Origin: Bacteroidota bacterium
GTDB lineage: Bacteria > Bacteroidota > Bacteroidia > CAILMK01 > JAAYUY01
Direction of reading: 5' to 3'
Assembly (NCBI GenBank): GCA_018698135.1
Contig: JABINZ010000114.1
Coordinates: forward strand, 1-43,034
DNA: 43,034 bases
Under the pieces are notes generated by a model. It saw only the letters and a list, made by a program, of their open reading frames with translations. It was not told where the DNA came from and ran no database searches. Each line of letters opens with the position of its first letter. The first letter of the stretch is position 1. A program made the translations under genes and the position numbers. Positions 23,740 to 28,790 of the stretch are shown piece by piece.

Positions 23740-23893
23740 AAATTATCAGTGTCCACTATGTGAGACACTGATTGGACAAACCTGAGTTATATCCACAAAG
23801 TGTCTCCTGCAAGGGAAACTGTGTTTGACTGTGAAAATAGCAATCTGCCGGTAGAAACATATTTGTTGGTGATAACACCAACAAAGGCGGAAA
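23731..23893 (+). repeat. Repeat block R7
   Basis: Near-copy of R5: AGTACTTGAAAATTATCAG, hairpin ATCAGTGTC/GACACTGAT (23745-23772), a degraded ACAAAGTGTC/GAAACTGTGT pair, core AGCAATCTGCCGGTAGAAAC, and a perfect hairpin TTGTTGGTG (23863-23871), loop ATAA, CACCAACAA (23876-23884), then AGGCGG. It forms the right edge of the island, 13 bp from the stop of the convergent transglutaminase gene. Confidence 0.85.
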
Positions 23894-23905: not shown

Positions 23906-26212
23906 CTACTTTCTATATATCACTTTAGAAGTTATCATTGAATTTTCCTGATAAGCTTTAATAATATAAATACCATCAGAAATGCCATCGTCAGGTTTCC
24001 ACACAAAAGGTGAATGTTGCATTGTTTCAACAAGCTCTCCACACAAATTGAAAATTTCAATGTGGTTTGTATGTATTGGGGCTTTTATTGTGCAATTCTG
24101 ATTAAATGGATTTGGATATACTGTAATAGAATTGTCTTCTTCAAATTCATCCAATCCAGCCCAAATTGCATTACTAATTAGTTCCACATTTGCTTCGAGT
24201 TGCTGATAATTCGTTGTTGCTTCTTCATTAGAAAAAACGACATACCATTTTCCGACTGTAGGTACGGGGAGGTATAGATTTCCACTGTTGAAGTATTTTA
24301 CTGGGAAATAATAATCAAATGCTTGTCCTGCTTTATATTGGTCATAATTTGCCTGATCACAAACAAAAAAAGTAAGTGAACCATTATCAGGTGTTTTGAG
24401 GGCAAACGTGCTATTCTGAACATCTTCAGTGTTTTGTCCTGCAATAACTCCTTGTGCTGTGAAATTAATGTGCAAACCAAATGAAGCTGTTTTGGGCAAA
24501 TCTATTCTATTTCCATAATTCAACTCAGGCATGCTTCCTGCTAAAAATTGAGCTGTCACCGGATAGGTCTCTTTATCTAATGCAATAGTTGTGTTAATGA
24601 TGTTGGCTTGCGTGCTGTTAGGAATATAGCCAAAGTCTTTATGGAAAATTTGGTAACCGTATTTTTTCCCTGCTCCAACATTCACGCTGGCAATACCTGT
24701 ATGATCTGTCCAGGCAAATCCCACATTGTCGACCCAACCTGTGCTATAAGCACCGGGGCTACACCAGAATTCTACCTTTGCTCCATCAACTGCTTTGCCA
24801 TTTTGATCAGTTACCTGAATTTTGAGTGTGCACATTTTATCGTTGTAGTATGAAGATAAAATATCAGGATAACCATCTGCACGGGTTGTATGTGCAATGG
24901 AAGTAGTCCAACTATAGCTACCACCTTTCATCATATTGGTAATACCAGCAAAGGAGGGGCTGATTACTTGGCTGAATCCGCCTCTGAAAAACTCATAATG
25001 ATACCAATCTTCATCCCAAATCATCCCATAAGCATGATCTTCGCCATGAACACCAATATGAACAATCGGAATTAAGGCTGTTCTACAGGCAGCAGCAACG
25101 AGCAATGCATCCTCGTGACAATTTCCATTGTGCTCATTAATAATCTGATTAGGCTCAAAAGGTCGGTTGCCTGCAGCATCTATTGGCAAGGAGCGGGAAG
25201 CCCAATTGCCTAATACATCCAGTGCATGATCTTCTGGATCAAATGATCGATTGAATGGAAAGTATTTCTCAACCCTATCCCATAAATATTCGGGTTGCTG
25301 CATAATGGCACCGAAGCGTTGTATAGTATCAATTGTTCCTTTTGATGTAGTTATATTTACTTGAGTATAATCGAAAACTGAGTGCGGATTTGACCACAAA
25401 TATTCACGCCAGAAATAGCCATAAGTCCGAAACTGTGTGCTGGATGATCGGTCTTCTTTATAAACTCCTTCGCGATCAATTTTAGGCATAACTACATACC
25501 AATAGTAAATTTCCTTTGGAATTTCAGACCAGATAAAGTTAGATCCTTCTTTTATTTTATATTCAGTAGTGGTGTAATAATCTCCTGATGCATAACTGCC
25601 GTGTTCCACCAGCCTCACATATTTTAAGGAATCAACCACGTTATAAATATGTTGTGCGTTTTCTTTTACTAAATCAATAGTGCTTCGGAATCTTGAATCT
25701 TTAAGTGTTTCAGTGGATAAGTTTGCAATTTGAAAAGCAACTTCATCTACAATAGCATTGGGTGCATTAATTATTTGATTGGCAAAAATTCCATCTATTT
25801 TAAATACAGCAAGTTTTCTGAATTGACGATGTAAATCATCTTTTAACCAATTTGGAACTTTGTTTAATGCCGACTGACACAAAGGGTTTAATGTATATTC
25901 GGGCGTAATAAATTCGATACTTTGCGCATCGATATCAATCTGAAAAACTGCTTTTTCATTCGGAAAAAGTATTTCCTTTCCAGATGTGCTGCTAATTACA
26001 TCATTCGATTTTAGCGCGTTATGATTTATTTTTACTGATTGGTAATCAATAAAGGGAGTTGTGTTTTTATCCATTAACACACCTGCATTAATATCTTGTT
26101 TCAGGTATACAATTCCTTGCTCAGGAACACTTTTTTGAATACTGATTTGAGCGAATGAACAAGTGGAAATTAAGGCTGAAATTAGCAGAAAACATAAAAT
26201 TCTTGTGGGCAT
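23906..26212 (-). CDS. Secreted transglutaminase-like protein with type A T9SS sorting domain
   Basis: 768 aa. The signal peptide ends near CSFAQ (residues 18-22). The central transglutaminase-like core has a plausible catalytic triad: Cys365 in NEHNGNCHEDA, His393 in GEDHAYGMIW and Asp400 or Asp402 in WDEDWYHYE. A carboxypeptidase-regulatory-like beta domain follows (VTDQNGKAVDGAKVEFW to GKKYGYQIFHKDFGYI). The last 75 residues form a type A sorting domain: ITVYPNPFNQN, then IEIFNLCGELV, then DGIYIIKAYQENSMITSKVIYRK. It is expected to cross the outer membrane by T9SS and to act on the surface as a cysteine protease or peptide-modifying enzyme; actual chemistry is uncertain. Confidence 0.87.
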   Translation of the reverse strand: MPTRILCFLLISALISTCSFAQISIQKSVPEQGIVYLKQDINAGVLMDKNTTPFIDYQSVKINHNALKSNDVISSTSGKEILFPNEKAVFQIDIDAQSIEFITPEYTLNPLCQSALNKVPNWLKDDLHRQFRKLAVFKIDGIFANQIINAPNAIVDEVAFQIANLSTETLKDSRFRSTIDLVKENAQHIYNVVDSLKYVRLVEHGSYASGDYYTTTEYKIKEGSNFIWSEIPKEIYYWYVVMPKIDREGVYKEDRSSSTQFRTYGYFWREYLWSNPHSVFDYTQVNITTSKGTIDTIQRFGAIMQQPEYLWDRVEKYFPFNRSFDPEDHALDVLGNWASRSLPIDAAGNRPFEPNQIINEHNGNCHEDALLVAAACRTALIPIVHIGVHGEDHAYGMIWDEDWYHYEFFRGGFSQVISPSFAGITNMMKGGSYSWTTSIAHTTRADGYPDILSSYYNDKMCTLKIQVTDQNGKAVDGAKVEFWCSPGAYSTGWVDNVGFAWTDHTGIASVNVGAGKKYGYQIFHKDFGYIPNSTQANIINTTIALDKETYPVTAQFLAGSMPELNYGNRIDLPKTASFGLHINFTAQGVIAGQNTEDVQNSTFALKTPDNGSLTFFVCDQANYDQYKAGQAFDYYFPVKYFNSGNLYLPVPTVGKWYVVFSNEEATTNYQQLEANVELISNAIWAGLDEFEEDNSITVYPNPFNQNCTIKAPIHTNHIEIFNLCGELVETMQHSPFVWKPDDGISDGIYIIKAYQENSMITSKVIYRK

Positions 26213-26233: not shown

Positions 26234-26241
26234 CAAATTTA
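26234..26241 (-). promoter_or_regulatory. -7 element TAAATTTG for the transglutaminase-like gene
   Basis: TAnnTTTG on the minus strand, 21 bp before the ATG at 26212. No distinct TTG element was seen at the expected distance. Confidence 0.38.
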
Positions 26242-26289: not shown

Positions 26290-27372
26290 CTACTTCTTAT
26301 GTGTATTAATCATTAAGCTTGTCAGTTCCAATAATAGTTGGGCACCAAGTTGAGCATCCCAATTTTCATTTTCCTTTTTTGGACGTATACCGCATAAGTC
26401 AAAACCAATTATTCTTTTGCCACTTTGCATGAGTTCGGAAATCAGGAAGGAGATTTCTTCATAAGAAAATCCAGATGGTTGCGGAAATCCAACCTGTGGC
26501 ATTAAATGCGGTTGAAGCACGCTTGCATCAAAACTGATGTAAACATTTTTAGGCAAGGGACTAATTATTTCACTTATCAGCATCTTAAAGGTGGTGCCTT
26601 TAAATTGTTTTTCCTTGATATATTTGTCGGAATAGTACTTAATAATTTGGTAGTTTTTATCGATGACTTCTTTTTCTTCATAAGTAACCTCACGACAACC
26701 AGCTAAAACTAATTTTTTAACCTGATTTAGTTTCAACGCATGATACATACTAGAAAAATCAGAGTAATCTAAACCTTCGTAGCTTCTATATAAATTAGGA
26801 TAGGCATCCAAATGCAATATGCCAATATTATCGTAGTTACGTGATAATGCGGTAATAAAACCTGACGATATTGCCTGATCGCCACCTAACAAACCTACCA
26901 GTTTATGCGATTTCAGGTATTCGCCTGAAATATGTTCCACCCAATCATTAAGAAGTTTGCTCGTAAGGTTTATGTTTTTACAATCTGTAATTAATTCAGC
27001 TCGTTTAGCTTCTGAAAGTTTCTTGCGGAACTGGCGTTCAATCCGGTTTCTGATCTTTCGAAGTTTATAGCTGCTTTCCTTCCACTTTAGAGGGATGTTA
27101 TGCATGAAGATTCCATTTTTCCATGCATCTTCTAATTTTTCTTGAAACAGGCTTAAGCTTTTGGATGCTTCTAAAATTGCTTCGGGCGCGTTTGCTGCTC
27201 CATCATTTGGGGAACTTATATCCCATGGAATAGGGATGATAACCGCATCTGATTCATCCAGATCAAAAGGTAAAGCAAAGATGCCATCTGCACGTGGCCC
27301 TGCTTTGTTCACATCAAATTCAATGAGTTTCTTATCCCTTATTTTCTTCCTTTTGGCTGGACCTGCTGACAT
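26290..27372 (-). CDS. Arginase/agmatinase-fold protein with degenerate metal site
   Basis: About 360 aa from ATG 27372 (a longer frame from TTG 27399 is possible). The ureohydrolase frame is recognisable: VIIPIPWDISSPNDGAANAPEAI, VGLLGGDQAISSG, IGILHLDAYPNLYRSYEGLDYSD, VYISFDASVLQPHLMP and a C-terminal GFDLCGIRP. The ligands of the Mn2 centre are mostly replaced. GGDH is GGDQ (Gln166); DAHxD is DAYPN (Tyr191, Asn193); SxDxDxxDP is SFDASVLQP (Ser284, Gln287). Only two Asp ligands remain (189 and 282). It is unlikely to hydrolyse arginine, agmatine or formiminoglutamate; a non-catalytic or changed function is inferred. It lies 3' of an ornithine-type aminotransferase gene, which hints at a link with arginine/ornithine metabolism. 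Confidence 0.82.
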   Translation of the reverse strand: MSAGPAKRKKIRDKKLIEFDVNKAGPRADGIFALPFDLDESDAVIIPIPWDISSPNDGAANAPEAILEASKSLSLFQEKLEDAWKNGIFMHNIPLKWKESSYKLRKIRNRIERQFRKKLSEAKRAELITDCKNINLTSKLLNDWVEHISGEYLKSHKLVGLLGGDQAISSGFITALSRNYDNIGILHLDAYPNLYRSYEGLDYSDFSSMYHALKLNQVKKLVLAGCREVTYEEKEVIDKNYQIIKYYSDKYIKEKQFKGTTFKMLISEIISPLPKNVYISFDASVLQPHLMPQVGFPQPSGFSYEEISFLISELMQSGKRIIGFDLCGIRPKKENENWDAQLGAQLLLELTSLMINTHKK

Positions 27373-27500
27373 GTAGTTAAGACTGGATTTGTTGAACAAT
27401 GTTCGGGATTATGCGAGGAGTTTCAAAAAGGAGTTATTCACAGCAAATCAAATTTCAAAATATGTTCATCACCATGCCTCTTTGATTTAGGCCAGACCAA

Positions 27501-28691
27501 TCAAATCTCATCCAGCGTTTTCAGTATAATGGCACAACTCTCTTCAATTTCTTCTTCAGTAATGGTGAGGGGAGGGATAATACTAAAGGAGGTATTATCA
27601 AATAAAAACCAATAGGTGATAAGGCCATTTGGTATAACGTTTTCAACAAATTTTTGGGTGATTTCAGCATTTCCCAAATCCACTGCCAACAGAAATCCTG
27701 TTCCACGAATTTCCTTGATTTTGGAATGAACAAGAAGTTTTCGGAATAACAAGCTTTTGGATTCTATTTCCTTAAGATAGTTTTCGCTGCTAAGAACTTC
27801 TAATGTTGCCAAAGCAGTAGCACATACCATTGGGTGCCCACCAAAAGTGGTGGCATGACCCATTAAAGGATGTCCATTATTTAGAGAATTCATTATTTCG
27901 GGAGATGAAATAAAGGCGCCAATTGGCAAGCCACCGCCTAAACTTTTTGCCAGACATAAAATGTCGGGAACAACGTGGAAATAATCAAGGGCAAATAATT
28001 TTCCTGTTCGTCCCAAGGCAGTTTGAATTTCATCAAAAATAAGGAGTACCCCAGTTTTGTTACATTGTTCTCTTACTGATTGTAGGAAATTATCTTTAGG
28101 CATAATCATTCCTGAAGCCGTTTGAATAGGTTCAATTATTACACAAGCTGTTTGGGATGTTATTTCCTTTATTTGTTCAAAATTGTTGAATTCCAATTGC
28201 TTTTGTAATGGAGCTAAAGGCCGAAAAGGATTTTTGAATTTCTCATCTCCCAATAAACTCAATGTTGCTTGTGTGCTTCCATGATAGGAACCTTTAAATG
28301 AAATAATCTCATAACGATTGCTATGCAGTTTGGCAAGTTTAATAGCTCCTTCAATGGCTTCGCTTCCGGAGTTGACAAAAAATGAACTGCTTAAGCTTGT
28401 AGGTAAAAGGCTTGCTAATTTTTCAGCCAGTTTAACGGTTTCTTCCTGTACGAACTCACCATAAACCATAATGTGGAGGTATTTGTCGAGTTGTTTTTGT
28501 ATAGCATCCATTATTTTTGGATGCCTGTGGCCCAAGTTATTTACGGCAACTCCTGAAATTAAATCGATGTATTTTTTGCCCTCTTTATCGTGTAAATATA
28601 TTCCTTCTGCTTTTTCAATTTCCAGCTGTACAGGAGCAAAATTGGTGGTTTGAGCAAGATGTGTTTTATAGCTTTGAAAAAGATTTTCCAT
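27501..28691 (-). CDS. Class III PLP aminotransferase (ornithine/acetylornithine type)
   Basis: 396 aa. Fold-type I class III signatures: GIYLHDKEGKKYIDLISGVAVNNLGHRHPKI, FFVNSGSEAIEGAIKLAK (phosphate site), SFKGSYHGST, LLIFDEIQTALGRTGKLFA (Asp220 contacts the pyridine N) and LAKSLGGGLPIGAFIS with Schiff-base Lys249; HATTFGGHPMVCA completes the active site. It transfers an omega-amino group to 2-oxoglutarate; ornithine, acetylornithine or a related diamine/omega-amino acid is likely. The arginase-like gene follows after a gap of about 130 bp on the same strand. Confidence 0.9.
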   Translation of the reverse strand: MENLFQSYKTHLAQTTNFAPVQLEIEKAEGIYLHDKEGKKYIDLISGVAVNNLGHRHPKIMDAIQKQLDKYLHIMVYGEFVQEETVKLAEKLASLLPTSLSSSFFVNSGSEAIEGAIKLAKLHSNRYEIISFKGSYHGSTQATLSLLGDEKFKNPFRPLAPLQKQLEFNNFEQIKEITSQTACVIIEPIQTASGMIMPKDNFLQSVREQCNKTGVLLIFDEIQTALGRTGKLFALDYFHVVPDILCLAKSLGGGLPIGAFISSPEIMNSLNNGHPLMGHATTFGGHPMVCATALATLEVLSSENYLKEIESKSLLFRKLLVHSKIKEIRGTGFLLAVDLGNAEITQKFVENVIPNGLITYWFLFDNTSFSIIPPLTITEEEIEESCAIILKTLDEI

Positions 28692-28790
28692 TGTAATTGC
28701 GTATTAGCTAAACAAATTTAATTCATTAAGTTTGGAAAGTATAAGATAAAGTGACGAATACTATTTATAATTAATACACGTTTTATTTCT

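What the first reader, a model, noticed from the sequence alone, without database searches (positions are those of the whole stretch)
26290..27372. Arginase-fold protein that has lost most of its metal site
Of six conserved Mn ligands only two Asp remain; GGDH is GGDQ, DAHxD is DAYPN and SxDxDxxDP is SFDASVLQP. The rest of the fold motifs are kept and the gene is intact, so it is maintained for another role. Its neighbour is an ornithine/acetylornithine-type aminotransferase, suggesting a regulatory or scaffolding role in arginine or ornithine metabolism.
Basis: partly seen in the sequence, partly recalled or inferred. Interest (0 to 1): 0.55.

Follow-up and report, generated by a model that had tools for sequence, protein, structure and literature searches.

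The report
A dead agmatinase kept intact
An uncultured bacterium and its closest relatives keep a well-preserved copy of a polyamine-making enzyme whose catalytic centre has been lost, so the protein very probably does some job other than catalysis; such "pseudoenzymes" of this family are already known from a few other organisms.

Summary
The gene at 26290-27372 (-) encodes a 360-residue arginase-fold protein (PF00491, E=1.5e-39) with two of six metal ligands (Asp189, Asp282); the catalytic His (205, now Asp) and substrate Glu (328, now Gly) are gone too. It belongs to a clade of four genomes (three genera, one family) inside a Bacteroidota agmatinase family; 52 of 57 aligned rows keep all eight residues. 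All four share Glu328Gly but lost ligands differently: 5, 4, 2 and 1 of 6 remain. The replacement residues are mostly not shared, so no substitute metal site is visible. Against its genus-mate the gene shows purifying selection like its neighbours (pN 0.15, synonymous sites saturated, no indel or stop). In three of four genomes it follows a class-III aminotransferase, probably co-transcribed. Some intact relatives lie beside polyamine genes, so the ancestral role was probably agmatinase, not arginine/ornithine metabolism. Best reading: a maintained pseudoenzyme that acts by binding; the partner is unknown. Precedents exist (MetCb of metformin hydrolase, the Fusobacterium Oda arginase domain, the T. 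brucei arginase-like protein): a new member of a known kind.

The parts
26290..27372 (-). arginase-fold pseudoenzyme (pseudo-agmatinase), 360 aa from ATG 27370-27372; an upstream in-frame TTG at 27399 exists, but the genus-mate's ATG aligns with 27372
26875..26877 (-). codon of Gln166, in place of the metal-ligand His of GGDH
26806..26808 (-). codon of Asp189, retained metal-ligand Asp (kept in all four degenerate members)
26800..26802 (-). codon of Tyr191, in place of the metal-ligand His of DAHxD
26794..26796 (-). codon of Asn193, in place of the second metal-ligand Asp of DAHxD
26758..26760 (-). codon of Asp205, in place of the His of the SHAS loop (catalytic role recalled)
26527..26529 (-). 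codon of Asp282, retained metal-ligand Asp of SxDxD
26521..26523 (-). codon of Ser284, in place of the second metal-ligand Asp of SxDxD
26389..26391 (-). codon of Gly328, in place of the Glu of FDLxE (substrate-binding role recalled); the loss shared by all four degenerate members
27501..28691 (-). class-III aminotransferase (ArgD / putrescine-aminotransferase-like), upstream and probably co-transcribed gene
28713..28720 (-). TAAATTTG, fits the Bacteroidota -7 promoter motif TAnnTTTG (consensus recalled), starting 29 bases before the aminotransferase ATG; same offset in the genus-mate
23906..26212 (-). secreted protein with a type IX sorting domain; third gene of the trio, found at E<=1e-20 only in this family (4 of 60 genomes). 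Its transglutaminase-like match is weak (E 0.016, below the Pfam cut-off)
26234..26241 (-). TAAATTTG starting 29 bases before the ATG of the secreted protein (a TATATTTG at 28 in the genus-mate): possible promoter of its own
23862..23885 (-). terminator-like hairpin (10 pairs) after the trio

Best explanation
It is a pseudoenzyme descended from the ~350-residue agmatinase family of Bacteroidota. In the ancestor of this bacterial family the Glu at position 328 became Gly, which should have ended hydrolysis (inferred; the role of this Glu is recalled from arginase and agmatinase work). The metal ligands were then free to drift and were lost piecemeal and differently in each lineage, while selection kept the fold (shown by alignment, tree and substitution pattern). 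The protein therefore works by binding rather than by catalysis (inferred). The most likely partner is the product of the aminotransferase gene just upstream, with which it appears to be co-transcribed, or itself as a homo-oligomer (inferred, weak). Stepwise: catalytically dead as a ureohydrolase about 0.9; maintained by selection about 0.95; partner is the aminotransferase about 0.3.
For: 52 of 57 aligned rows intact; Glu328Gly in 4 of 4 members of the clade; ligands left 5/6 (G002), 4/6 (G001), 2/6 (window), 1/6 (G003a). The four form one branch (100/100) on a tree built without the motif columns. Asp193 is lost in the window and in G002 but kept in the window's sister G001, so lost at least twice. 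Window against G001: pN 0.153, pS 0.815, divergence by codon position 0.21/0.11/0.54, 360 codons without indel; six neighbouring genes pN 0.118-0.177. Full ureohydrolase fold at high confidence. Aminotransferase / pseudoenzyme / secreted protein in this order in G000, G001 and G002, in G002 with other genes upstream. A -7-like box before the aminotransferase and the secreted gene in both genomes looked at, none before the pseudoenzyme. Ancestral role: intact relatives lie directly beside a fused SpeD-SpeE gene in G005, G008 and G010 and a deoxyhypusine-synthase-like gene in G039; of four intact ones scanned, the G039 one passes the agmatinase cut-off (178.3 against 174.3) and three fall short (164.2, 159.6, 138.9). 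The window's genome has a separate intact agmatinase in a decarboxylase / agmatinase / DS-like cluster, so the copy may have been redundant.
Against: No shared His or Cys in the four. In G003 the gene, the aminotransferase and the secreted protein lie on three different contigs. The aminotransferase is common (51 of 60 genomes) and, by the listed places, adjacent to an intact agmatinase only in G004 and G011. G002 keeps five of six ligands and might still bind metal. G002 has no agmatinase-type gene besides this one in its assembly, so redundancy does not explain all four. Concentration of losses on catalytic positions is weak: p 0.045 in the window, 0.063 G003a, 0.45 G001, 1.0 G002. Most genomes do not show the polyamine neighbours: AdoMet decarboxylase occurs in only 10 of 60. 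The -7-like motif is not enriched in the window (57 seen, 67 expected). Only four members are known.
Confidence: 0.6

Rival explanations
1. It is the non-catalytic subunit of a mixed hexamer with an active ureohydrolase of the same cell, as MetCb is for MetCa in metformin hydrolase: the dead subunit shapes or caps the partner's active site.
For: [quoted passage not shown] The model aligns to metformin hydrolase chains (8ryi, 8x3g, 8snf; Z about 32; which subunit each chain is was not checked). The window genome, G001 and G003 each hold an intact ureohydrolase.
Against: The possible partner is not adjacent (C123 against C114 in the window genome) and not of one kind: a distant agmatinase in G000 and G001, a ~350-residue family member in G003, none found in G002 (96% complete). 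The metformin hydrolase genes form a pair.
Confidence: 0.15
2. It still does chemistry, with a mononuclear or different metal, or metal-free, on another substrate.
For: Asp189 is kept in all four members and Asp282 in three of four. Divergent active members are reported, such as the mammalian agmatinase-like protein (abstract starts in the listing).
Against: No His or Cys is shared by the four. The His205 and Glu328 positions and much of the substrate loops are changed and differ between members.
Confidence: 0.12
3. It is a sensor that binds agmatine, putrescine or a related amine and regulates the aminotransferase or transcription.
For: Likely co-transcription with an aminotransferase whose best-scoring solved sequence is a putrescine aminotransferase (4uox, 246.5 bits), and ancestry from an agmatinase.
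Against: The old substrate-site motifs differ among the four members, the opposite of a kept ligand pocket. The aminotransferase scores higher with argD (351.5) than with putrescine models (298, 257), all below cut-off; acetylornithine aminotransferases score nearly as well among solved ones (239.5).
Confidence: 0.1
4. It is a dying gene with no function.
For: The site decays progressively, and G003a is very divergent (end branch 2.0).
Against: Purifying selection between two species with saturated synonymous sites, 360 codons without indel or stop (about 15 stops expected in a rough neutral simulation); open frames in all four genomes, though that of G002 runs into an assembly gap.
Confidence: 0.03

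Closest known systems
Intact ~350-residue agmatinase family of Bacteroidota (44 reference rows here)
   Same: Same family by sequence (up to 42% identity), length and fold; the degenerate clade branches inside it
   Different: All 44 keep six ligands, His and Glu; some lie beside polyamine genes; the window protein has lost six of these eight residues
MetCb subunit of metformin hydrolase (Aminobacter; PMC11271267: abstract, section 9 and passages seen)
   Same: Arginase-fold subunit with five of six metal ligands changed, kept for a non-catalytic role
   Different: Encoded as a pair with its active cognate MetCa; the window gene has no ureohydrolase beside it. Metformin hydrolase chains share 15-16% identity with the model in structural alignment (subunits not told apart)
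Arginase domain of Fusobacterium nucleatum Oda (PMC12826042: passages seen; PDB 8d27)
   Same: Arginase domain described as present in all sequenced F. nucleatum genomes although two metal-binding Asp are replaced by Ser and Asn
   Different: Fused to an ornithine decarboxylase; fewer ligands lost
Trypanosoma brucei arginase-like protein (paper not held; seen only as cited; that PDB 4rhi-4rhq are this protein is recalled)
   Same: Arginase fold that evolved without a binuclear Mn cluster
   Different: Eukaryotic; weak sequence match here (E 3e-5 to 2e-4)
GSSQ-type arginase-fold protein of Bacteroidia (L050:9980-11125 in this genome)
   Same: Arginase-family match with altered metal site, kept widely
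   Different: Distinct family with its own C-terminal region; 56 of 60 genomes; far from the window gene on the tree

Membership tests
Arginase/ureohydrolase fold superfamily (PF00491) | Profile match over the domain | tested here: met
   136.6 bits against cut-off 22, residues 51-359 of the TTG-start frame
Arginase/ureohydrolase fold superfamily (PF00491) | Ureohydrolase fold | tested here: met
   Model mean pLDDT 89.5; Z 33.5, 296 residues, 2.3 A to 3niq
Catalytic ureohydrolases (agmatinase, arginase, formimidoylglutamase) | Six ligands of the binuclear metal centre | tested here: not met
   2 of 6 kept
Catalytic ureohydrolases (agmatinase, arginase, formimidoylglutamase) | Catalytic His and substrate-binding Glu (roles recalled) | tested here: not met
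   Asp205 and Gly328; 52 of 57 rows have His and Glu together with all ligands
Catalytic ureohydrolases (agmatinase, arginase, formimidoylglutamase) | Score above the curated cut-off of a specific model | tested here: not met
   Agmatinase 106.1 of 174.3; arginase 66.9 of 227.6; hutG 49.2 of 229.15. Three of four intact relatives scanned also miss the agmatinase cut-off, so this test is weak
Pseudoenzymes of the ureohydrolase family | Lost catalytic residues with purifying selection on the gene | tested here: met
Pseudoenzymes of the ureohydrolase family | No catalysis and no bound metal | not testable with these tools
   Needs assay and ICP-MS or structure
MetCaCb-type enzyme/pseudoenzyme pairs | Paired gene for an active ureohydrolase subunit | tested here: not met
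   The other two ureohydrolase-family genes of the genome are on C123 and C161, not on C114
MetCaCb-type enzyme/pseudoenzyme pairs | Physical heterohexamer | not testable with these tools
   No complex prediction available

The most novel reading that the evidence does not exclude
A former agmatinase has become an obligate non-catalytic subunit of a PLP-dependent (putrescine- or ornithine-type) aminotransferase made from the same transcript, that is, a pseudo-ureohydrolase that controls an enzyme of an unrelated fold, perhaps the next step of the same pathway. Eleven positions are identical in all four degenerate members but rare in intact relatives, four of them between residues 231 and 264, and could mark a new interface. 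The graded series (5, 4, 2 and 1 ligands left) would let one watch an enzyme turn into a partner protein. I know of no such case (recalled; the listings show none).
Probability: 0.15. Interest if true: 0.55.

Novelty: new member of a known kind. Interest (0 to 1): 0.33.

Why it matters
It adds a bacterial, stand-alone case to the short list of arginase-fold pseudoenzymes, and one with living intermediates. The relatives keep five, four, two and one of the six ligands, all after the same Glu-to-Gly loss, so the order in which a dead metalloenzyme loses its site can be read directly. It also warns that an 'agmatinase family' label in Bacteroidota does not imply activity.

Tried and rejected
Recent decay in one strain: rejected, four genomes of three genera share the Glu loss. 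Replacement residues as a new conserved site: not supported, they vary among the four. Alternative metal centre from shared His/Cys: none shared by the four. Ornithine transaminase as neighbour: not supported, the genome's own is on C16. The first scan of genome contigs with the protein found nothing; the second, with the four-row alignment, gave eight loci, of which only the genus-mate's contig (L076) is degenerate. A dN/dS ratio could not be given for this gene: synonymous sites are saturated. A structured leader before the gene: no (z 0.36). Defence-system models: none. G003a as a recent duplicate of G003's intact copy: the trees separate them, but the AU test does not reject it (p 0.06); the bootstrap of the main tree had not fully settled and G003a sits on a long branch. 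The chains 4rhi-4rhq were not among the 50 rows listed or, only in the sequence search.

Rows left out: G028 and G048 (fragments as extracted) before the second alignment; L081 and L083 from the first tree, G000ss and G053 also from the second. The 44-row reference set was made after I had seen the motif table, by leaving out 13 of 57 rows: four degenerate, the GSSQ row, five of the other agmatinase type, G053, L081 and L083; the last eight are intact. The GSSQ family was read in 30 of 56 genomes hit. My first extraction of relatives read minus-strand loci on the wrong strand and was replaced.

Full report
What is there. The minus-strand ORF 26290-27372 (ATG at 27372; an in-frame TTG lies at 27399) encodes 360 residues. 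It matches the Pfam arginase family at E=1.5e-39 and no NCBIfam enzyme model above cut-off. The AlphaFold model, made with nine sequences, has mean pLDDT 89.5 and aligns over nearly its whole length with solved ureohydrolases: guanidinopropionase 3niq Z 33.5, proclavaminate amidinohydrolase 1gq6 33.1, E. coli agmatinase 7lba 31.9, metformin hydrolase 8ryi 31.9.

The metal site. It also has Asp205 for the His of the SHAS loop and Gly328 for the Glu of FDLxE (their roles as catalytic His and guanidinium-holding Glu are recalled from arginase and agmatinase work). In the 44 intact homologues used as reference these eight positions are invariant.

Relatives. A protein search of 60 relatives hit 52 genomes, in part by more distant ureohydrolases. 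Of 57 rows in the final alignment, 52 keep all eight residues; the other five are the window protein, G001 (same genus, 72% identity), G002 and G003a (same family, 47% and 38%) and the GSSQ-type protein of the window genome. Only four genomes of the family and twelve of the order are held, the window's included.

Order of loss. On a tree built without the motif columns the four form one clade (100/100), with topology (G002,(G003a,(G001,window))). All four have Glu328Gly, and Ser for the Asp at 74 that 43 of 44 reference rows have. Ligands kept: G002 five (Asp193 lost), G001 four (His166 and Asp284 lost), window two, G003a one. G001 keeps His191 and Asp193, which its sister, the window, has lost; G002 has lost Asp193 on its own. 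The simplest reading is that the Glu went first and the metal site was then released from selection. G003a's long branch makes its exact place less sure.

Selection. Between the window and G001 the gene has pN 0.153 and pS 0.815; six neighbouring genes have pN 0.118-0.177 and pS 0.66-0.81. Divergence by codon position is 0.21, 0.11 and 0.54, and all 360 codons align without a gap; a rough neutral simulation predicts about 15 stops. The protein is about as constrained as its neighbours. Of 60 positions conserved in the reference rows the window keeps 37, G001 38, G002 41 (three of its positions fall in the gap) and G003a 27. Catalytic positions are lost more often than others in the window (6 of 8 against 17 of 52, p 0.045) and, less clearly, in G003a (7 of 8 against 26 of 52, p 0.06), but not in G001 or G002. 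Eleven positions are identical in all four and rare in the reference rows, among them 231, 240, 248 and 264; whether they form a patch was not tested.

Neighbourhood. Upstream on the same strand, 128 bases away, is a class-III aminotransferase; downstream, 77 bases away, a secreted protein with a type IX sorting signal. The trio occurs in the same order in G001 and in G002, where the genes upstream of it differ. In G003 the three lie on different contigs. The secreted protein occurs at E<=1e-20 in 4 of 60 genomes, those of the family (one clade, so weak evidence). TAnnTTTG, the Bacteroidota -7 consensus (recalled), begins 29 bases before the aminotransferase ATG in both the window and G001 and 29 and 28 bases before the secreted gene, but is absent from the 128 and 185 bases before the pseudoenzyme; over the window the motif is not enriched (57 seen, 67 expected). 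No terminator-like site was found between aminotransferase and pseudoenzyme. So these two are probably co-transcribed.

The aminotransferase. Its best NCBIfam model is argD (351.5 bits of a required 410), and the 25 models shown, of 74 matched, are all below cut-off; the best-scoring solved sequence is a putrescine aminotransferase, 246.5 bits, with acetylornithine aminotransferase at 239.5. An ornithine transaminase lies on C16 (670 bits, cut-off 378.4). Relatives of the aminotransferase occur in 51 of 60 genomes at E<=1e-60; by the listed places only those of G004 and G011, one genus of another family, lie close to an intact agmatinase, in the opposite orientation with a small ORF between.

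Ancestral role. Intact relatives lie directly beside a fused S-adenosylmethionine decarboxylase / spermidine synthase in G005, G008 and G010 and beside a deoxyhypusine-synthase-like gene in G039. Of four intact ones scanned with NCBIfam, the one of G039 passes the agmatinase cut-off and three fall short. AdoMet decarboxylase is found in 10 of 60 genomes and not in G000-G003; a DS-like gene in 36 of 60, among them G000, G001 and G003 but not G002. Agmatinase, or aminopropylagmatine ureohydrolase as in Thermus (PMC10981699, passages), is thus the likely ancestral role. The window genome and G001 have an intact agmatinase of another branch in a decarboxylase / agmatinase / DS-like cluster; G003 has an intact family copy; in G002 none was found. 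Redundancy is a plausible but incomplete reason for the loss.

Known kinds. PMC11271267 (abstract, section 9 and passages seen) describes MetCb, a metal-free arginase-family subunit with five of six ligands changed that enables its partner MetCa, and says that arginase-family proteins without a binuclear centre are known in eukaryotes and prokaryotes, with elusive functions. PMC12826042 (passages) describes the non-functional arginase domain of Fusobacterium Oda. PMC5602898 (passages) mentions the T. brucei arginase-like protein; its own paper is not held. The searches for arginase or ureohydrolase with pseudoenzyme or missing manganese cluster listed 4, 10 and 2 papers; by title and start of abstract none concerns Bacteroidota; most subscription journals are not covered.

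Conclusion. The inference of a maintained pseudoenzyme is supported; the arginine/ornithine role is not, and polyamine metabolism is the better guess. Partner and function remain inferred. It is a new member of a known kind, with an unusually clear series of intermediates.

Noticed in passing
L050:9980-11125 (own genome, contig C161): A second arginase-family protein (GGSQ/GSSQ type, C-terminal RWWMEVP region) with relatives in 56 of 60 Bacteroidia genomes. In the 30 read, the His of GGDH is kept in 1, the His of DAHxD in 1 (no row has both), the second Asp of SxDxD in 0, while three Asp are kept in 28 each and the Glu in 26. A class-wide, conserved, probably metal-poor ureohydrolase relative far below the formimidoylglutamase cut-off (37.6 of 229.15); possibly more interesting than the finding itself.
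   Followed up: partly
window 23906-26212 (-): 768-residue secreted protein with a type IX sorting signal and a weak transglutaminase-like match (below Pfam cut-off), found at E<=1e-20 only in the four genomes of this family (4 of 60); a second, distant copy in G002.
   Followed up: partly
L040, L043, L045 (G005, G008, G010): Intact agmatinase-family gene directly beside a fused SpeD-SpeE gene (AdoMet decarboxylase plus spermidine synthase), suggesting an agmatine or aminopropylagmatine route to spermidine in these genomes.
   Followed up: partly
L039, L046 (G004, G011): Intact agmatinase divergent from a relative of the window's aminotransferase, with a small ORF between.
   Followed up: no
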